A stretch of 40,488 nucleotides of DNA. It comes from Dyella sp. ASV24 (GTDB lineage: Bacteria; Pseudomonadota; Gammaproteobacteria; Xanthomonadales; Rhodanobacteraceae). Positions within the stretch are counted from its first letter, which is position 1. The number at the start of each line of letters is the position of its first letter. Below the pieces are notes generated by a model. The model was not told where the DNA came from and ran no database searches. It saw only the letters and a program-made list of their open reading frames with translations. The DNA lies in the NCBI RefSeq assembly GCF_016428905.1, contig NZ_JAELTQ010000029.1, forward strand, positions 1 through 40,488, read 5' to 3'. Below, in pieces: positions 1,787 to 40,488 of the stretch. Position numbers and translations under genes: made by a program.

Positions 1787-3571
1787 TTACTTTTTCTTCT
1801 TCGGCATGTACAGATCGGTGATGGTGCCTTCATAGACTTCCGCAGCCATGCCCACCGATTCACCCAGCGTGGGATGCGGATGGATGGTGAGGCCGATGTC
1901 GGACGCTTCCGAGCCCATCTCGATCGCCAGGCAGATCTCGCTGATCAGGTCTCCCGCATGCGGGCCGACGATGGCGCCACCGACGATGCGATGGGTTTCC
2001 TCATCGAAAATCAGCTTGGTGAAGCCTTCGGTGCGGTCGATGCCGATGGCGCGGCCGCTGGCCACCCACGGGAACTTGCCCACGCCGACCTTGAGGCCCT
2101 TCTCCTTGGCCTCGCGCTCGGTCACACCCACCCATGCCACTTCCGGATCGGTGAAGGCGACGGACGGAATCACGCGTGCGTCGAAATAGCTCTTCATGCC
2201 AGCAACAACTTCTGCCGCCACGCGTGCTTCATGCGTGGCCTTGTGCGCCAGCATGGGCTGCCCCACCAGGTCGCCGATGGCATAAATGTGCTGCACGTTG
2301 GTGCGCATCTGCGTATCGACGTTGATGAAGCCACGCTCCGTGACGGCCACGCCGGCCTTGTCCGCGCCAATCTTGTTGCCGTTGGGCGAGCGCCCCACAG
2401 CGACCAGCACGCGGTCAAACAGCGTGGTCTCGGGAATGCTCTCGCCTTCGTAGCTGACCTCGATGCCCTTCTTGGTGGCCTTGGCGTCCACCACCTTGGT
2501 CTTGAGATGCACGCCCTTGAGCTTTTTGCTGAGGCGCTGCGCCAGCGGCTTGATGAGGTCGGCATCGGCGCCCGGGATGATCTGGTCCATGAACTCGACC
2601 ACGGTCACTTCGCTGCCTAGCGCAGAGTACACGGTGGCCATTTCCAGGCCGATGATGCCACCGCCGACGACCAGCAGCTTCTTGGGTACTTCCTTCAGCT
2701 CAAGCGCGCCGGTGGAATCCATGATGCGCTCGTCGTCCCACGGGAAGGCAGGCAGCTTCACTGACTGCGAACCCGCCGCGATGATGGCGTTCTCGAAGCG
2801 GATGAGCTTGGTGCCCTCGGCCGTCTGGACTTCCATTTCATTCGGCGAAATGAAAGTGCCCACGCCCTGCACGGTGCGCACCTTGCGCTGCTTGGCCATG
2901 CTGGACAGGCCACCGGTGAGCTTGCCGACCACCTTGGTCTTGAAGTCGCGCAGTTTGTCGATATCGATTTTCGGCGCGCCAAAGCTCACGCCATGCGCGG
3001 CCATCGCCTCGGCCTCGTCGATCACGGCAGCCGCGTGCAGCAGCGCCTTGGACGGAATGCAGCCCACGTTGAGGCATACACCGCCCAGCGAGGCGTAGCG
3101 CTCGACCAGCACGGTATCCACGTCGAGGTCAGCAGCGCGGAACGCGGCGGTGTAGCCGCCAGGACCGGAGCCGAGCACCACGAGCCTGCATTCGATATCG
3201 GGGGTGCGACCGGACGTACCAGCCGCCTTCGGTGCCGGTGTAGCCGCAGGTGCTGCGGCCGGAGCAGGCGCGGGAGCGGCCGGCGCGGCCTTAGGAGCAT
3301 CAGCCTTCGGCGCAGGAGTCTCGGCAGCACCAGAAGTTTCCAGCACGGCAATGAGCGCGCCTTCCGACACCTCGTCACCCACCTTGACCTTCAATTCCTT
3401 GATCACACCGGCGGCGCTCGACGGAATTTCCATCGTGGCCTTGTCCGATTCCAGCGTGATCAGGCTTTGTTCCTTGGCGACGGTGTCGCCGACCTTCACC
3501 AGTACCTCGATCACCGGCACGTTGTCGTGACCGCCGATGTCGGGGACTTTGATTTCGATGGTGCTTGCCAT
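1787..3571 (-). CDS. lpdA: Dihydrolipoyl dehydrogenase (E3) with N-terminal lipoyl domain
   Basis: This 594-residue flavoprotein re-oxidises the dihydrolipoyl groups of the pyruvate dehydrogenase complex, passing electrons through FAD to NAD+ in the cytoplasm. Residues 1-80 are a lipoyl domain with the acceptor lysine at about K44 (ESDKATME). An Ala/Pro linker follows to about 120. The E3 core has the FAD motif GSGPGGY near 134, the redox disulfide C166/C171 (GGVCLNVGC), an NAD-binding glycine motif near 310, and the C-terminal HPHPTLGE with the His/Glu pair at about 566/571. The start at 3571 is preferred over 3619 because the lipoyl domain begins there and AAGGA precedes it. It is downstream of aceF on the same strand. 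E3 proteins with a lipoyl domain are known from several beta- and gammaproteobacteria. Confidence 0.95.
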
Positions 3572-3625
3572 GGGGAATCCTTGGATTTCTTGTTCGCTAC
3601 GCAGTGGGGACCGGCGCAAGATTGG

Positions 3626-3662
3626 CCCCTCACCCCAACCCTCTCCCCGAAGGGGAGAGGGA
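3626..3662. repeat. Solo hairpin repeat, same family as the ends of the 1-kb element
   Basis: This 37-bp sequence in the aceF-lpd gap contains CCCTCTCCCC GAA GGGGAGAGGG. It matches the outermost hairpin of the large elements at 17071-18137 and 30531-31607, including the adjoining CCTCACCCCAA. Here it occurs without the rest of the element. It lies between two genes probably read as one transcript, so it may affect mRNA stability or the ratio of E2 to E3. Confidence 0.85.
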
Positions 3663-3676
3663 GCAACGCTCGGGCT

Positions 3677-5362
3677 TCAGAGCAAGAGGCGGCGAATATC
3701 GCCGAGCTGCTGTGCGAGATAGGAAGCGAAGCGCGCGGCGAGCGCGCCGTCGATCACGCGGTGGTCGTAGCTGAGCGACAGCGGCAGGATCAGGCGCGGC
3801 GCGAATTCCTTGCCGTTCCACACCGGCTTGGTGGCTGCCTTGGACACGCCAAGGATGGCCACTTCCGGTGCATTGACGATCGGCGTGAACGCCGTGCCGC
3901 CGATACCGCCGAGCGAGGAGATGGAGAAGCAGCCGCCCGACATTTCCTTGGGGCCAAGCTTCTTGTCGCGTGCCTTCTTGGAGATCTCGCTCAGTTCCGT
4001 GGCGAGCTCCAGCAGACCCTTCTTGTCGCAATCGCGGATCACCGGCACCACCAGGCCATCGGGCGTATCCACCGCGATGCCGATGTGGAAGTACTTCTTG
4101 AGGATCAGCTTCTCGCCGGTTTCGTCCAGCGAGGAGTTGAACTGCGGGAACTTCTTCAGCGCTGCGACCACTGCCTTGATCTGGAATACCAGCGGGGTGA
4201 TCTTGAGATCTTTGTTCTCTTCGCCGAGCTTTTTGCGGAAAGCTTCCAGCTCGGTGATATCGGCATCTTCGTGCTGGGTGATATGAGGGATCATCGCCCA
4301 GTTGCGCGCCAGATTCGCACCGGAGATCTTCTGGATGCGCGACAGCGGCTTCTCTTCGATCTCGCCGAACTTGCTGAAGTCCACCTTCGGCCACGGCAGC
4401 AGGTTGAGGCCACCGCCGGCAGCCACCGGCGCACCGGCCGGACGCGCGCCAGAGGCCAGCGCATGCTTCACGTAACCGGTGACATCCTCACGCTGGATAC
4501 GGCCACCACGGCCACTGCCCTTCACTTGGCGGATATCCACACCCAGCTCGCGCGCGAAAGCGCGGATCGCCGGGCTGGCATACGGGGCGTCGCCCGGCAT
4601 GATGATCTTGGAGTCGAACGGCGCGCGCGCCGTCGGCGCGACATCGCCTTCCGGCGCATTGCCCGGCAGCACGCTACGACCGCCGACCGGCTCGGGCTTC
4701 TCTTCCACCTTGGGGGCTTCGACCCGGGCTGCCGCGGGCGCGGGAGCCGGCGCAGCGGCGGGCGCGCCACCGGCAGCTTCGACCAGCGCAATAAGGCTGC
4801 CTTCGGACAGCTCGTCGCCGAGCTTGACCTTGATCTCCTTCACCACGCCGGCGAACGGGGCGGGCACTTCCATCGTGGCCTTGTCCGACTCCAGCGTGAT
4901 CAGGCCCTGGTCCTTGGCGACGGTGTCACCCACCTTCACCAGGATTTCGATAACCGGCACGTTCTCGCTGCCGATATCCGGCACCTTCACTTCCTGCACG
5001 CCACCGCCGCCTGCCGCTGGTGCGGCGGCCGGTGCCGGAGCGGGAGCCGGCGCGGGGGCTGCCTTGGAAGGCGCCTCTGCCTTGGCCGGCGCAGCCTGCT
5101 TGGACGCGGGCGCAGCCGCTTCGCCGTCAGCCTCGATGATGGCGATAAGGGTGCCTTCGGACACCTCGTCACCCACCTTCAGCTTGAGTTCCTTCACCGT
5201 GCCCGCGAACGGGGCCGGCACTTCCATGGTCGCCTTGTCCGACTCCAGCGTGACCAGGCCCTGCTCCTTGGCCACCTTGTCGCCGGGTTTCACCAGCACT
5301 TCGATCACCGGCACGTTTTCGCTGCCGATATCGGGGACGCGTGCTTCTTTAAGGTCGGCCAT
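3677..5362 (-). CDS. aceF: Pyruvate dehydrogenase E2, dihydrolipoyllysine acetyltransferase
   Basis: The 561-residue E2 core protein transfers acetyl groups from lipoyl-lysine to CoA, making acetyl-CoA in the cytoplasm. Two lipoyl domains are visible, with acceptor lysines at about K43 and K161 (both in [12 protein letters not shown]). They are separated by Ala/Pro-rich swinging linkers. The peripheral subunit-binding domain is at about 260-300 ([15 protein letters not shown]). The catalytic domain ends with SYDHRVIDG, giving His534 and Asp538. The ATG at 5362 has GGAG upstream. Lpd follows about 105 bp downstream on the same strand. E. coli AceF has three lipoyl domains; here two are on E2 and one on E3. 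The E1 gene is not adjacent. Confidence 0.96.
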
Positions 5363-16189: not shown

Positions 16190-17011
16190 GTGAGCTACAC
16201 CCAATCGTTGCCCTGGACTCTGGAAAGCCTGGATTTCAGTCAGATCGACATCCCGCGCGTGCGCCAGAACGAAGACCTCTTCCTCCTGCTCTGCAGCGCC
16301 TCGTTTGTCGAAAGTGGTTCGGACTTATATACGCACAACCTCGTCGACCATTTCGCTGGCGACGAAACCCTCCAGACGTGGCTCAGCCAGCATTGGGAAC
16401 ACGAGGAACTGCAGCACGGCCGCGCCCTCGCCGCCTACGTGAAGGCCGTGTGGCCTGAGTTTGACTGGGACAAAGGCTTTGCTTCGTTCTGGGCCGAGTA
16501 CGGTGCGGTTTGCACCGCCGAACAGCTGGAGCCCAGCCGCGGGTTGGAACTGGCGGCTCGCTGTGTAGTGGAAACCGGCACCGCAAGTCTGTATCGCGCG
16601 CTCAACGACATCACCGACGAGCCCGTACTCAAGCAGCTCACCGGCCACATCAAGAGCGATGAAGTCCGCCACTACAAAAACTTTTACCAGCACTTCCGCC
16701 TGTACCGCGAACGCGAAGGCTTCAGTCGCTACAAGGTGTTCCGCGCCATCCTGCGCCGCGTGAATGAGATCCGCAGCGAGGATAGCGATATCGCACTGCG
16801 TCACGTGTTCAATCAGTGCTATCCGCACTTGAAGGAGAACGAGGCGGAGTTCAAGCGCATCACTGGGCGGGCGCAGGATTTGTTGCGGCGGAATATTCCG
16901 GCGGAGATGACGGTGAAGATGTTGCTGAAGCCGTTGGAGTTGCCGCCGCGGTTGCAGAGTGCCATGGAGAAGCCGTTGGCGAAGTTGGCGGAGAAGTTGT
17001 TTCTCAACTGA
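16190..17011 (+). CDS. Ferritin-like di-iron protein (acyl-ACP desaturase-like ligand pattern)
   Basis: The 273-residue helical protein shows the full carboxylate di-iron ligand pattern: E41 (FVESGS), EELQH at 72-76, E128 (VVETGTASLY) and DEVRH at 157-161. The spacing and the paired E-E-x-x-H and D-E-x-x-H motifs resemble acyl-ACP desaturases and related oxygenases rather than iron-storage ferritins. The substrate is unknown; oxygen-dependent hydroxylation or desaturation is a reasonable inference. The GTG at 16190 is chosen because AGGAAAG precedes it and the homologous-looking sequence starts there. The last part of the gene is rich in G-ending codons compared with the first part. Confidence 0.85.
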   Translation: MSYTQSLPWTLESLDFSQIDIPRVRQNEDLFLLLCSASFVESGSDLYTHNLVDHFAGDETLQTWLSQHWEHEELQHGRALAAYVKAVWPEFDWDKGFASFWAEYGAVCTAEQLEPSRGLELAARCVVETGTASLYRALNDITDEPVLKQLTGHIKSDEVRHYKNFYQHFRLYREREGFSRYKVFRAILRRVNEIRSEDSDIALRHVFNQCYPHLKENEAEFKRITGRAQDLLRRNIPAEMTVKMLLKPLELPPRLQSAMEKPLAKLAEKLFLN

Positions 17012-17070
17012 TCGCACGCTTGAGCTTCTCTCTTCCCTTCGGGCTAGGGGCAATCTAGCCGTAGCTTTGC

Positions 17071-18137
17071 TCCCTCTCCCCTTCGGGGAGAGGGCTGGGG
17101 TGAGGGGTGGGTGCTCGCCTTATCGTTTCGATGAAACCGCCACCCCGGCGCAGGCCGGGGTCCAGTAGCGTCGGTGTTCGGTGTTCGGTGTTCGGTTTTC
17201 GCCTCATGCGCTCCCGCGATCTGGCCGCTTACGCAGCGGGCGTTTCGATCGTCTGCCGACGCTCGAGTCACTTTTCTTTTGCTGGCCCAAAAGAAAAGTA
17301 ACCCAAAGAAAATGGCCGTAAGGCCAACGCCCGCAGCATCACGATGGGATAAGCCCGAACGGGTGAGGAATCGTGTGACTTGGCCACCTTCGCCTCTACA
17401 CAGCGGGTACACCGGAGCGCTTCGCAACGCGCCATGGCGCAGAGGACTTAAAGCAGGCCTCGCTACGCTTCCCGATCGCTGAGGCTAGAGAAGGAGGACG
17501 CTACGCTTTCCTACCGACGAGGCTAGGTAAAGGGAGCGCTACGCTTTCCTACCACTGAGGCAAGGTAGAGCAGACGCTGCGCTTCCCGACCGGTGGGGAG
17601 AACTCGACACCTAACGGCATCATCGTTGTCTTCTGCCTTGGCTTTGTGTCCCTGCTCTAGAGCAGGAGCAACGCGACCTGCCGCGATGCGATGTGCAGCA
17701 ACGCTGCACGAGCCGTCCGCTTGGCGCTTTTGACCTTCGGGCCCCCTTGAGCGGCGGTGAGGGGTGGACGAAAAGGCCCCGTAGGGGTGCCGGGCAGGAC
17801 GCCCGGCACTTTTCGTCGGGGCAGGAGCCCCGTCGAAAAGCCCGGACGCCCCTCACGGACTGGCCGGCTTCACCGGCCAGCGCCGCGATGGGGGTGCCGT
17901 TTCTTTTGGTTACTTTTCTTTGGGCAAGCAAAGAAAAGTGACTCGGCCTCCGGCAGGAGGTCGAAACGCCCGCTGCGTAAGCGGCCAGGTCGCGACCACG
18001 CGACAATCAAGCGATACCGCTACTGGACCCCGGCCCTTGCCCCCTTTTGTGGGGTTCGCCGGGGTGACGGCTATAGTTGAAACGATAAGGCGAGCACCCG
18101 CCCCTCACCCCAACCCTCTCCCCGAAGGGGAGAGGGA
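17071..18137 (+). repeat. Large structured inverted-repeat element, copy A
   Basis: The 1067-bp element begins and ends with the hairpin TCCCTCTCCCC / GGGGAGAGGGA. The outer 59 bp of the two ends match in inverted orientation with two differences. Further in, each arm carries GTGCTCGCCTTATCGTTTC, then CCGGGGTCCAGTAGCG, then a block of about 95 bp with CTGGCCGCTTACGCAGCGGG and a long A/T-rich hairpin (17270-17299 left, 17912-17939 right). The core (about 17330-17890) has 38-bp tandem units and several hairpins. Reading frames inside lack ribosome-binding sites, and mirrored copies arise simply because the arms are inverted. No transposase or target-site duplication is seen. It lies 59 bp after one gene and 77 bp from the end of the opposing one. 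Confidence 0.9.
17461..17600 (+). repeat. 38-bp tandem units in element copy A
   Basis: Three consecutive units start at 17461, 17499 and 17537, each exactly 38 bp and each beginning CGCTACGCTT, followed by a degenerate partial fourth unit from 17575. Each contains a GAGGC core roughly in the middle. The units differ at several positions, so they are old rather than freshly expanded. Confidence 0.9.
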
Positions 18138-18214
18138 GAAAAGCCGACGCGACTCAGACCCGTCCAGCGCCAGCCCCTTACAGGGGCACCCAAACGCCCC
18201 AACACAACCACCCA

Positions 18215-30530: not shown

Positions 30531-31607
30531 TCCCTCTCCCCTCCGGGCGACCCGAAGGTAGTCCCCTTTTTGGGAGAGAGGGTTGGGGTGAGGGGCGGGT
30601 GCTCGCCTTATCGTTTCATCTTTGGCCGTCATCCCGGTGGTGGTCGGGAGCCCGTTTCGTCAGTGGTCGGCTGTCGCTTCGTGCGTTACCGCGACCTGGC
30701 CGCTTACGCAGCGGGCGTTTCGATCGTCTGCCGACGCTCGAGTCACTTTTCTTTTGCTCGCCCAAAAGAAAAGTAACCCAAAGAAAATGGCCGTAAGGCC
30801 AACGCCCGCAGCATGTCCTTGGGATAAGCCCGAACGGCTGAGGAATCGTGTGGCTTGGCCACCTTCGCCTCTACACAGCGGGTACGCCGAAGCGCTTCGC
30901 AACGCGCCGGTGCGGGGAGGACTTAAAGCAGGCCGTGCTACGCTTCCCGATCGCTGAGGCTAGGGAGAGAGGACGCTACGCTTTCCTACCGCCGAGGCGA
31001 GGTAAAGGGAGCGCTACGCTTTCCCACCACTGGGGCAACGGAAAGCAGGCGCTACGCTTCCCAACCGCTGTGGAAAACTCGCCACCTAACGGCGTCGCTT
31101 TTCTCTTCTGCCTCGACTTTGTGCACCTAGAGCAGGAGCAACGCAACCCGCCGCGATGCGATGTGCAGCTTCGCTGCACGAGCCGTCTGCTGTCGCTTTT
31201 GATCTTCCGGGCCCCGTATGAGGCGGCGGGCGGATGGAGATCAGGCCCGCAGGGGAATCGGCAGGGATGCCGATTCCTTTTCGTCGGGGCAGGAGCCCCG
31301 TCGAAAAGCCCGGAACCCGACCGCGTACCTGGAGGGCGTAGCCCGGAAGGCGCCGATTCCGGGGGGCCCTTCTCTTTGGTTACTTTCTCTTGGGCAAGCA
31401 AGAGAAAGTGACCCGGCCTCCGGCAGGAGGTCGGAACGCCCGCTGCGTAAGCGGCCAGATCGCGATCACGCGATAACCAAGCGATACCGCTACTGGACCC
31501 CGGCCCTTGCCCCCTTTTGCGGGGTGCGCCGGGGTGACGGCTAAAGATGAAGCCATGAGGCGAGCACCCACCCCTCACCCCAACCCTCTCCCCGTAGGGG
31601 AGAGGGA
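30531..31607 (+). repeat. Large structured inverted-repeat element, copy B
   Basis: This 1077-bp copy has the same order of parts and the same orientation as copy A: outer hairpin, GTGCTCGCCTTATCGTTTC, arm block with CTGGCCGCTTACGCAGCGGG and the A/T-rich hairpin (30745-30774), 38-bp tandem units, core hairpins, then the mirrored arm ending at 31607. Its left terminal hairpin is altered: the loop between TCCCTCTCCCC and GGGAGAGAGGG has grown to about 20 bp. The right arm's A/T hairpin (31382-31409) and the core hairpin at 31254-31277 differ from copy A on both sides of the stem. It lies downstream of maeB and upstream of aceE. Confidence 0.9.
30936..31085 (+). repeat. 38-bp tandem units in element copy B
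   Basis: Three units start at 30936, 30974 and 31012, each exactly 38 bp, with a partial fourth from 31050. Phase and length equal those in copy A, although individual bases differ. Confidence 0.9.
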
Positions 31608-31671
31608 GAAATAAACAACGTCACCGCACCTTCGCAACACACCCCACACATCAGCAAAACAACCCACCAAA

Positions 31672-34185: not shown

Positions 34186-35460
34186 TCAAAGACTGAGCGA
34201 CAACGTCTCCGCCTGCACCTTGCCCATGTGTATGCGATTGACGAACAAGGAGAAGGCCAGCTTGCCCGCCAGTCCGTGAGCATGCTGCATCCAGGGCGGC
34301 AGCCAGCGTGGCGCGGCGATCGCACCGGACTCAAAGTACGGTTGCAGGCTGATGACATCGTGCAGCGCCAGCTTGCCGGCGAAGAGATTCCGCAGCATGT
34401 CCATGCGGCGCTGCTTGAGCGCCCAGCGGAAGAAGGTGTGCACGGTGAGCAAGCCGGACAGGTAGACGTTGTCTTTCGCGAACGCTGCGCCGCCGGTGAG
34501 CGGCACGCCGCGGAACACGCGCTGCGCCGAGTGGAAGCTATCCGCCGGGTTCTGCCCGCACTCGCTGAAGAAACGGTAGACCTCAACGAAATCCGCACCA
34601 CTTAGCGCCATGTCGATCGCCAGAATGCGCAGGCTGATGCGCTTGAGCCGCGAAATGTCGATGGCGCCCGAGATCAGTTCGGCGAACACCGCCAAGCCTT
34701 CCTGCGTGGCGGTGACGCGGGGCGAGGTGCGCCCAAACGAGGCAAGCAGCGGCTGCGCGCGCCCATTGAGCGCAGTCAACGAGTGGACGAGGGCCTCGTG
34801 GGCCAGCAACTGGTGCCGGTCGTAATCGGTGAAACGCGTACCGCCGCGCAGGCGGATGCGTGTGGCGCCGGCCGCCGCCTTGGCGGTGAGTTCCGGATCC
34901 ACCTCCACGGAGATCAACGGCTCGCCGAAGAAGTCATCCAATGTTTTGCTCAAGTCCGCGCGCAGTTCGTCGGCGGAAATCGCCACGTTCACGTCATCCG
35001 CGATCAGGTCCGAACCCAATTCGTCCGACAGCTCGACAAAGTAGCGAGCGGCGTCGAGGTTGCTGCGGTCGCTGCCTGGAATCACGTCGCCTGGGCGGCC
35101 GTACAACACGATGGACGGTGCCGTCACTTGATCCGTGCCCACCGCTTCGAGCATCTCGGCGGCAATGCGCCATGACTCGGCTGTGCGGCACAGGTACTCG
35201 CCGAGCGGGTCGTCGTAGCCCGCCTCGCGCTCGATCGCGGCCAGTTCGGCGCGCTCGGTGGAGAGATCCGGTACGTGGTAGTTCACCTCCGGCAGCGTGA
35301 ACTGGCCTTTGGCATAGGCCGCGATCATGCGGTCTTCCAGCGAGGCGGGCCAGGCCACCGTGGGAAGGATGCGAATGCCTTTGACCGCCGCCAGCAGGCG
35401 CTGGTCGAGGTCGGCGTAGCGTTGCAACTCGGGGCTGAAGCGGGTGGCGTCGACGTTCAT
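34186..35460 (-). CDS. DUF1704 protein, MATCAP-like putative metallopeptidase (QEGLA motif)
   Basis: The 424-residue protein carries a zinc-type HExxxH motif (HEALVH, residues 221-226) followed by TQEGLAVFAE, with the glutamate at about 254 as a likely third ligand. This is the DUF1704 pattern shared with the eukaryotic tyrosine carboxypeptidase family MATCAP. Bacterial members are annotated as flavohemoglobin expression-modulating QEGLA motif proteins. The substrate here is unknown, and no signal peptide is seen. The C-terminal half is helical with a basic tail. Its ATG overlaps the stop of the upstream membrane protein gene by 4 bp, so the two are coupled. Confidence 0.85.
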   Translation of the reverse strand: MNVDATRFSPELQRYADLDQRLLAAVKGIRILPTVAWPASLEDRMIAAYAKGQFTLPEVNYHVPDLSTERAELAAIEREAGYDDPLGEYLCRTAESWRIAAEMLEAVGTDQVTAPSIVLYGRPGDVIPGSDRSNLDAARYFVELSDELGSDLIADDVNVAISADELRADLSKTLDDFFGEPLISVEVDPELTAKAAAGATRIRLRGGTRFTDYDRHQLLAHEALVHSLTALNGRAQPLLASFGRTSPRVTATQEGLAVFAELISGAIDISRLKRISLRILAIDMALSGADFVEVYRFFSECGQNPADSFHSAQRVFRGVPLTGGAAFAKDNVYLSGLLTVHTFFRWALKQRRMDMLRNLFAGKLALHDVISLQPYFESGAIAAPRWLPPWMQHAHGLAGKLAFSLFVNRIHMGKVQAETLSLSL

Positions 35461-40091: not shown

Positions 40092-40488
40092 CGGTTTGTA
40101 GGGTGGTTTTTGGTTTCGCAACCTGTGCGTGTACCGCAATGGCGGTAAGGGCCAGGAGCAATTTGCAACGGTGAAGTTAGTCGTCTCGCGTTGTTGGTGG
40201 TTGGTGGTTGGTGGTTGCATCGTGCGCTACCGCGATCGGGCCGCTTACGCAGCGGGCGTTTCGATCGTCTGCCGACGCTCGAGTCACTTTTCTTTTGCTC
40301 GCCCAAAAGAAAAGTAACCCAAAGAAAATGGCCGCAAGGCCAACGCCCGCAGCATTTCGATGGGATAAGCCCGATCGGCTGAGGAATCGTGTTGCTTGGT
40401 CACCTTCGCCTCTACACAGCGGGTACGCCGTAGCGCTTCGCAACGCGCCGGTGCGGAGAGGACTTAAAGCAGCTTTCGCTACGCTTCC
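40092..40488. other. Intergenic sequence up to the window end
   Basis: No gene is supported here. The first 130 bp are unique sequence ending in a short tandem heptamer (near 40194-40218), and the rest is repeat copy C, which runs out of the window. Confidence 0.75.
40222..40488 (+). repeat. Large structured element, copy C (cut by window end)
   Basis: The sequence matches copies A and B from the arm block (GGCCGCTTACGCAGCGGG) through the A/T-rich hairpin (40286-40315, stem ACTTTTCTTTT / AAAAGAAAAGT) and the AACGCCCGCAGCAT block into the first 38-bp unit, where the window ends. Unlike A and B it lacks the outer hairpin and the GTGCTCGCC arm piece on the left; the LpxH-like gene ends 130 bp before. 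Confidence 0.88.

What the first reader, a model, noticed from the sequence alone, without database searches (positions are those of the whole stretch)
17071..18137. Kilobase-size multicopy inverted-repeat element with no protein of its own
Copies at 17071-18137 and 30531-31607 and a truncated copy from about 40222 share the same order of parts and the same orientation. Both complete copies have long mirrored arms (roughly 230-250 bp each side, imperfect) and a core of about 550 bp. Three copies in 40 kb implies very many in a genome. No transposase, target duplication, tRNA or ribosome-binding site is seen in them. None interrupts a gene: one lies between convergent genes, one between maeB and aceE, one after a plus-strand gene. 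Their size and build exceed ordinary REP or BIME repeats. I do not know a named family for them; similar sequences in related genomes may be hidden as hypothetical ORFs.
Basis: partly seen in the sequence, partly recalled or inferred. Interest (0 to 1): 0.8.

Follow-up and report, generated by a model that had tools for sequence, protein, structure and literature searches.

The report
Multicopy repeat carrying CsrA-site-like RNA hairpins
A kilobase-long non-coding repeat scattered through this soil bacterium's genome contains a conserved RNA fold whose paired loops look like docking sites for the global regulator CsrA/RsmA; if transcribed, it would be a regulator-binding RNA copied into many gene ends.

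Summary
Confirmed: copies at 17070-18138 and 30531-31611 plus a truncated one from about 40204, with ~250-bp inverted arms. The own genome (Dyella-like) has dozens more: 40 of 178 candidate places were scored, all 40 matched. Copies sit at gene 3' ends, over half between convergent genes; 17 of 20 sites checked carry element DNA in a sister species too. Each is a mosaic of two outward-facing halves. The left half (A), aligned only from this genus, is unexplained. The right half (B) holds a ~105-nt core: a closing helix and two hairpins with A(N)GGA loops. A model of it matches 20 of 69 sampled genera of the order, often as head-to-head pairs. Stems change by compensatory pairs while loops stay. 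Covariance models link the core to Rfam TwoAYGGAY (RF01731), predicted in print to bind CsrA (untested) and placed by Rfam in one clan with RsmX/Y/W; Rfam's own model does not report the window copies. So the core is a known but functionally unproven RNA kind; carrying it in a high-copy kilobase inverted repeat at gene ends is the new part. Best reading: transcribed copies bind CsrA/RsmA. RNA fold well supported; expression and binding inferred; mode of spread unknown.

The parts
17070..18138 (+). complete copy 1 (A half + B half)
17072..17094 (.). left terminal palindrome CCCTCTCCCC-TTC-GGGGAGAGGG
17140..17169 (.). REP-like palindrome in left arm (resembles CGTC-tagged REPs; family consensus not tested)
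17267..17303 (+). left arm hairpin, 37-mer
17461..17591 (+). 38-bp tandem array (3.4 units) in the A half
17753..17857 (+). B core, TwoAYGGAY-like RNA domain
   Evidence: R1 112.1 bits (this core is in R1's training set); R2, built without any sequence of the own family, 75.3 bits, E 4.7e-19
17757..17764 (+). closing helix P2, 5' strand (pairs with 17849-17856)
17787..17809 (+). hairpin HP1, loop AGGAC at 17796-17800
17810..17839 (+). hairpin HP2, loop AGGA at 17823-17826
17849..17856 (+). closing helix P2, 3' strand
17908..17942 (-). right arm hairpin HP5, 35-mer, about 50 nt after the core
18022..18070 (.). REP-like palindrome in right arm
18114..18136 (.). right terminal palindrome
30531..31611 (+). 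complete copy 2, between aceE and maeB
30742..30778 (+). left arm hairpin of copy 2
31222..31325 (+). B core of copy 2
   Evidence: R1 112.5 bits; R2 78.2 bits, E 6.7e-20
31378..31413 (+). right arm hairpin of copy 2 (CTCTTG variant)
40204..40488 (+). truncated copy 3 (arm and A half only; cut by window end)

Best explanation
The element is an old, multicopy, non-coding mosaic repeat made of two outward-facing halves with REP-like terminal arms. The B half carries a structured RNA domain of the TwoAYGGAY kind: a closing helix holding two hairpins with A(N)GGA loops. When neighbouring genes are read through at their 3' ends, the outward strand of a B half becomes RNA and its two loops can be bound by the two faces of a CsrA/RsmA dimer, so the copies act as dispersed 3'-end CsrA sites, and together perhaps as a sponge. 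In head-to-head B-B elements either direction of read-through gives one sense B unit. Shown here: copy number (floors), architecture, compensatory stem changes with kept loops, link to RF01731, presence of csrA. Inferred: transcription, CsrA binding, titration, mode of spread.
For: Covariation on 30 diverse cores: 95.8% of cells paired, 106 double-change cells vs 30.0 (sd 4.6) shuffled, 0 of 500, and at most 25 when slid; on 14 cores from outside the own family, 25 of 31 pairs with double changes (that alignment was fitted to the structure and leans to it). HP1 loop holds GGA in 97 of 103 units over 20 different inner-stem strings, some of them register variants; HP2 loop columns read C-AGGA-G in 97 of 101 rows. 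A(N)GGA loops per folded unit: outward strand 2.02, other strand 0.14, shuffled 0.10; at least two in 97 of 106 units, 6 of 106 on the other strand, 2 of 318 shuffles. G-U 12 vs A-C 3 on the outward strand in the 30 diverse cores. At 13 sites shared by G000 and G491, 0 changes in 85 loop positions vs 574 of 3957 elsewhere. RF01731 over gathering in Pseudoalteromonas L243 and L239, just below in L232, L236, L238; R2 hits the same three L243 places (E 1.7e-6 to 3.3e-6) and the window cores. CsrA in 12 of 12 genomes, CsrB model in 0 of 12 with E. coli control positive; the HREEIY stretch is present in 4 of 4 CsrA read. Convergent 32, tandem 26, divergent 2 of 60 evaluable copies vs 54, 201, 57 of 312 background pairs.
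Against: No expression or binding data. No sigma-70-like promoter in 17000-18200. Tandem copies show no sense bias (10 sense, 14 antisense), so A-B copies are not placed to be read in sense. G-U vs A-C over the broad set shows no strand preference for HP1 (15 vs 17) and HP2 (0 vs 4); HP4 (18 vs 6) and HP5 (97 vs 13, mostly one fixed pair) favour the outward strand. The A half has no such loops on its outward strand and 0.17 per unit on the other. HP1 lost GGA in 6 of 103 units. RF01731 does not report the window copy even at E 10. R1 reports neither L239 nor L243 at E 1, and R2's hit in L239 is not at the RF01731 place. The 0-of-85 loop count used sites where the own copy has the motif, which roughly halves the expected number of changes; gene conversion could also mimic it.
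Confidence: 0.58

Rival explanations
1. A DNA-level non-autonomous mobile element (MITE- or REPIN-like): hairpins and loops are kept because a transposase recognises them in single-stranded DNA, and RNA plays no part.
For: Inverted arms, terminal palindromes, tens of copies, 19 alike cores in G416 whose whole elements are about 86-97% alike, a site without the element in the sister genome (L021/L133), mosaic association with REP-like palindromes.
Against: No Y1/HUH transposase hit in G491 although it has 42 copies in the loci read, and the single one in G000 has unrelated inverted repeats; no target duplication seen by eye at L021/L133 or at the 10 of 19 G416 copies with both ends printed; 17 of 20 sites shared with the sister species, so little recent movement; HP4 and other loops vary while HP1 and HP2 keep A(N)GGA.
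Confidence: 0.22
2. A gene-end punctuation element: long hairpins between convergent genes end or insulate transcription or stabilise 3' ends, as proposed for REPs.
For: Excess between convergent genes; very stable predicted folds.
Against: In copy 1 the T-runs lie before, not after, the terminal hairpins, and terminator-like hits are at chance (2 vs 1.5 expected); does not explain constant A(N)GGA loops with changing stems.
Confidence: 0.12
3. Neutral debris of an ancient repeat that avoids promoters and genes; conservation reflects shared ancestry and gene conversion only.
For: Full-length copies are 79-87% alike to copy 1 within the genome, shared-site B halves 84.5-89.5%, many partial copies.
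Against: Stem pairs change together across families while loops stay; loops unchanged at shared sites.
Confidence: 0.08

Closest known systems
TwoAYGGAY RNA (Rfam RF01731, clan CL00106)
   Same: Two adjacent hairpins with GGA loops inside a closing helix; R2 and RF01731 meet at the same three places in L243, and RF01731 (sub-threshold) and R1 meet in L232, L236 and L238.
   Different: Window cores not reported by RF01731 at E 10; loops are A(N)GGA rather than strict AYGGAY; here inside a high-copy kilobase inverted repeat, with an extra small CCC-GCA-GGG hairpin.
CsrB / RsmX / RsmY / RsmZ / RsmW sponge RNAs
   Same: GGA in hairpin loops; one genome of the own family gives a sub-threshold RsmW match at the core (L190, 34.8 bits, gathering 52).
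   Different: Here many copies, no promoter found; the CsrB model has no match in 12 of 12 genomes.
RsmU of Xanthomonas campestris (PMC7694677, passages seen, some from the abstract)
   Same: RsmA-binding RNA processed from an mRNA 3' UTR, in a genus that to my knowledge belongs to the same order.
   Different: Described there as made from one mRNA, limited to Xanthomonas and without Rfam homologues.
GTAG/CGTC REPs, BIMEs and TIR families (PMC3733652; abstract, sections 7 and 16, passages seen)
   Same: Palindromic modules, mostly downstream of genes and between convergent or same-direction genes; REP-like modules lie in the arms.
   Different: REPs are given as 20-40 bp; this element is about 1 kb with a constant internal RNA core and no RAYT link found.
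Pseudomonas fluorescens intergenic repeats, e.g. R178/R200 (PMC2718517, passages seen)
   Same: Multicopy intergenic repeats (101 and 320 bp for these two) with tail-to-tail bias for the largest families.
   Different: Sequences not compared here.

Membership tests
TwoAYGGAY RNA (RF01731) | Score at or above the Rfam gathering cut-off | tested here: not met
   No RF01731 row for window 17000-18200 at E<=10 nor for L001 and L012, which hold both window copies, at E<=5; met by L243 and L239
TwoAYGGAY RNA (RF01731) | Two adjacent hairpins inside a closing helix, supported by covariation | tested here: met
   31 pairs, 95.8% of cells paired, 0 of 500 shuffles
TwoAYGGAY RNA (RF01731) | Terminal loops strictly AYGGAY | tested here: not met
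   HP1 loops of 30 diverse cores: ATGGAT 9 and ATGGAC 1; 19 others hold GGA in another form, 1 is CACGAC
TwoAYGGAY RNA (RF01731) | Homology by transitive covariance-model link | tested here: met
   R2 hits both the window cores and the RF01731 places in L243; but not the RF01731 place in L239
CsrA-binding RNA | A(N)GGA in hairpin loops, in pairs | tested here: met
CsrA-binding RNA | Binds CsrA | not testable with these tools
   No binding data
CsrB-type sRNA gene | Own promoter and terminator | tested here: not met
   0 promoters; terminators at chance (copy 1 only, consensus scan)
MITE | Terminal inverted repeats | tested here: met
MITE | Target site duplication | tested here: inconclusive
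   None seen by eye at one site without the element and at 10 of 19 G416 copies
MITE | Parent transposon with the same ends | not tested
   No genome-wide search for genes flanked by these ends
REPIN/RAYT | RAYT associated with the repeat | tested here: not met
   Y1_Tnp 0 in G491, 1 in G000 with unrelated repeats

The most novel reading that the evidence does not exclude
A CsrA/RsmA-binding RNA domain has been amplified as a repeat to tens of copies per genome across much of this order (and as head-to-head pairs in a Pseudoalteromonas), giving a genome-wide, read-through-driven sponge that ties transcription past gene ends to the level of free CsrA, in genomes where no CsrB match was found.
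Probability: 0.3. Interest if true: 0.85.

Novelty: new variant of a known kind. Interest (0 to 1): 0.66.

Why it matters
TwoAYGGAY was listed in 2010 as a probable RNA of unknown role, with a later CsrA-binding prediction that its authors left untested. Finding it as the conserved heart of an abundant repeat gives many natural copies to test, covariance models that find them where Rfam's does not, and a possible answer to what binds CsrA in genomes where no CsrB match was found (0 of 12). It would also be a case of a dispersed repeat supplying sites for a global RNA-binding regulator.

Tried and rejected
Rejected: (1) RAYT-mobilised REPIN: no Y1 transposase hit in G491 and unrelated repeats at the one in G000. 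(2) Core inversion between arms: shared sites first looked inverted; this came from loci not being turned to the query. One search, which looked for same-orientation pairs only, found 13; window copy 2 is reversed in G491. (3) The terminal palindrome as a 23-bp target duplication: the loops of the two ends are reverse complements or unlike, not direct copies, in the G416 copies printed. (4) Pseudoalteromonas Pf1-Pf3 as the same RNA: their papers (PMC9927453 abstract and outline, PMC11882849 passages) describe CsrB-type sRNAs with promoters; sequences not compared. (5) Protein coding: 5 ORFs, 0 families. (6) Phages: no match in the phage collection. (7) A half as a CsrA RNA.

Weak or contrary results kept: G-U/A-C counts conflict between the broad set and the 30 diverse cores. 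Of 8 plasmid records hit through the arm hairpin 6 were fetched; Pasteurella, Ilyobacter and Burkholderia (L241, L240, L242) gave no R1 hit at E 1 and no R2 hit at E 10. The class-wide arm-pattern scan hit 5 of 369 genomes, own included; the phylum-wide R1 scan 6 of 299, own included, two of them weak and outside the order. Loci L177-L206 were fetched with a model that includes the loops, so their loop counts (24 of 30 with two, 6 of 30 with one, other strand 0) are biased upward. Papers with nothing on this element: PMC12306157 (one reference passage) and PMC2267715 (no occurrence of the terms).

Dropped rows: 13 of 73 copies had no gene on one side; 7 mixed G491 copies were left out of the orientation count; cores over 92% alike were thinned from 94 to 30; of 106 units 104 had a readable HP2 and 103 of those a perfect HP1 stem; only pairs with a B half in both genomes were used (13 of 20).

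Full report
WHAT IS THERE. The window holds two complete copies and one truncated copy of a repeat. Self-BLAST gives 84.5% between the complete copies over 1080 columns and a 79% inverted match between the two arms of copy 1 over 256 columns. A pattern for the hairpin in each arm occurs 109 times in the own genome, reversed control 0; the listed ones are 37 or 35 bases long, the left- and right-arm forms of copy 1. BLAST gave 178 candidate places, 40 scored, all 40 matching. The assembly has 635 contigs and five of the 40 places begin at base 1 of a contig, so copies probably break it.

WHO HAS IT. An exact 78-base pattern found three stretches of two named genomes, both Dyella. The sister genome G491 has one contig of 5,355,565 bases, the same length as the contig behind two Dyella terrae proteins. 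With the inner 791 bases as query, 136 of 197 genomes of the family and 22 of 26 genera matched; two places per genome were scored, and most listed matches outside the genus lie in the right part. With covariance model R1, 46 of 200 genomes of the order (20 of 69 genera, four families) and 6 of 299 of the phylum matched. At most 19 and 13 places per genome were scored, with stricter filters, so these are floors. In 400 kb of evenly spaced G491 stretches R1 found 8 cores, about 107 per genome by proportion; they fell in 4 of 20 stretches, so this is rough. In the G491 loci read, 42 distinct copies were catalogued.

ARCHITECTURE. Each full copy is two outward-facing halves. In the window the left half (A) has a 38-bp tandem array; 41 copies of it were aligned, all from three genomes of the genus. 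The right half (B) holds the core. In other Dyella and other genera the element is often B-B, head to head: 10 of 32 loci scanned show it (eight printed), and 7 of 42 G491 copies have mixed orientation. Ends are palindromes of the form CTCCCTCTCCCC-loop-GGGGAGAGGG. The arms hold REP-like palindromes. The maeB-aceE spacer could be read whole in 12 of the 20 genus genomes searched, own included: three have about 240-275 bp without an element, others carry a lone REP-like module, a partial or a full element.

AGE AND MOVEMENT. Left flanks of 20 own copies were all found in G491. Element DNA is present at 17 of the 20 sites (two of these arms only) and absent at 3: at L018/L115 G491 has only a solo palindrome, at L021/L133 no trace, at L017/L126 unrelated DNA; at window copy 1 it has arms without a core. 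At 13 sites both genomes have a B half in the same orientation, 84.5-89.5% alike. No target duplication was seen by eye. The only Y1 transposase hit of G000 has unrelated repeats and G491 has none. How it spreads is unknown.

POSITION. Gene calls by my own codon-usage script: of 60 evaluable copies 32 lie between convergent genes, 26 in tandem, 2 between divergent genes. Background in G491: 54, 201 and 57 of 312 pairs; with gaps of 100 bp or more 25, 98 and 52. Fisher p against the 312 pairs: 1.8e-8 for convergent, 0.0018 for divergent. Copies are related and many sites are shared between the two genomes, so these p values are too small, but the direction is clear. Tandem copies show no strand preference (10 sense, 14 antisense).

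THE RNA CORE. Thirty diverse B cores fold into one shape: closing helix P2, a small CCC-GCA-GGG hairpin, HP1 and HP2. 95.8% of cells pair; 106 double-change cells against 30.0 shuffled; slid controls reach 25. Loops stay A(N)GGA: HP1 97 of 103 with 20 inner-stem strings, some of them register variants; HP2 97 of 101 rows; in the 30 diverse cores GGA is in 29 HP1 loops and 30 HP2 loops. Folded one by one, 106 units have 2.02 A(N)GGA loops on the outward strand, 0.14 on the other, 0.10 after shuffling. Order-wide loci keep the loops with other stems. G-U exceed A-C 12 to 3 in the diverse set, but not for HP1 and HP2 in the broad set, where decayed copies may dominate. At 13 shared sites no loop position changed in 85, against 574 of 3957 elsewhere, with the bias stated above.

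NAME. From memory I recalled TwoAYGGAY and tested it. RF01731 matches Pseudoalteromonas loci L243 (65.1 bits twice, and 51.8) and L239 (51.3), gathering 43; L236, L232 and L238 reach 42.6, 42.0 and 41.5, and L230 of this order 37.4. R1, built from own-family cores, matches L232, L236 and L233 at 4-6e-6 and L238 at 0.002, but not L239 or L243. R2, built from 14 cores of other families, aligned by R1, matches the window cores at 5e-19 or better and L243 at the RF01731 places at 2-3e-6; its L239 hit (E 3.5e-4) lies elsewhere. The arm hairpin follows the core in these loci too. So the B core and TwoAYGGAY are best read as one kind. Rfam's clan CL00106 is printed for TwoAYGGAY and also for RsmW, rsmX and RsmY. 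One paper (PMC4333381, passages; authors Gardner and Eldai by recall) proposed CsrA binding for TwoAYGGAY and called it a testable hypothesis; another (PMC2864571, passages; Weinberg by recall) lists it as a probable RNA of human gut, gamma-Proteobacteria and Clostridiales. The passages I saw in these and in PMC11701678 and PMC11661157 mention no repeat element. That CsrA prefers A(N)GGA in loops is recalled; one search bears out GGA in hairpin loops, in pairs.

HOST. CsrA is in 12 of 12 genomes checked, a CsrB match in 0 of 12 while E. coli rings; other Rsm RNA families were not searched genome-wide. In Xanthomonas a 3'-UTR RNA, RsmU, binds RsmA (PMC7694677, passages).

LITERATURE. Ten searches were made. 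No title or abstract listed there describes this element; a search for its letters found one unrelated archaeal paper. Most subscription papers are not held, so the element may be described elsewhere.

VERDICT. Its conserved heart is an RNA of a known but functionally unproven kind; its packaging as a high-copy kilobase inverted repeat at gene ends is the new part. CsrA binding is likely but untested; expression is the open step.

Noticed in passing
window 3625-3673: A lone right end of the element (CCCCTCACCCCAACCC.. with the terminal palindrome) with no core beside it in the self-BLAST, 94-100% to the ends.
   Followed up: no
window 3348-3527, 4770-4978, 5124-5332: Imperfect repeats, 78-83% alike, perhaps repeated domains of a protein.
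   Followed up: no
window 17171-17201: Microsatellite TCGGTGT x 4.4 inside copy 1.
   Followed up: no
window 34186-35460, minus strand: Protein matching Pfam MATCAP, microtubule-associated tyrosine carboxypeptidase, E 1.9e-109, in a bacterium.
   Followed up: no
L136: The only Y1 transposase hit of the genome, with a 19-bp inverted repeat at 1354-1372/2143-2161, unlike the element.
   Followed up: partly
G000:C44:28874-29038: A second, weak CsrA-family match (28.1 bits, cut-off 27; open frame 108 aa) in the own genome.
   Followed up: no
L243, 398-2582: Seven TwoAYGGAY matches (three over gathering) on alternating strands in 2.2 kb of a Pseudoalteromonas piscicida replicon, like tandem head-to-head pairs.
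   Followed up: partly
G112: Eleven matches of a related arm hairpin (GTGACTTTTCTTTG..CGCCAAAGAAAAGTAAC) in a genome of another family of the class.
   Followed up: no
L195, 1537-1600, minus strand: Sub-threshold match (26.1 bits, gathering 35) to Bacillaceae-1 on the strand opposite to the core, the strand relation that PMC4333381 noted for CsrA sites.
   Followed up: no
L232, 2359-2444: C4 antisense RNA, 71.4 bits, near an element copy in a genome that looks Pseudomonas-like by its repeats (the genus is my guess).
   Followed up: no
L001, 3763-3839: Sub-threshold gyrA motif RNA (30.2 bits, gathering 45) downstream of copy 1.
   Followed up: no
L238 (NZ_AP026896.1): A 4.9-Mb Aeromonas caviae record filed as a plasmid, by its size probably a chromosome.
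   Followed up: no
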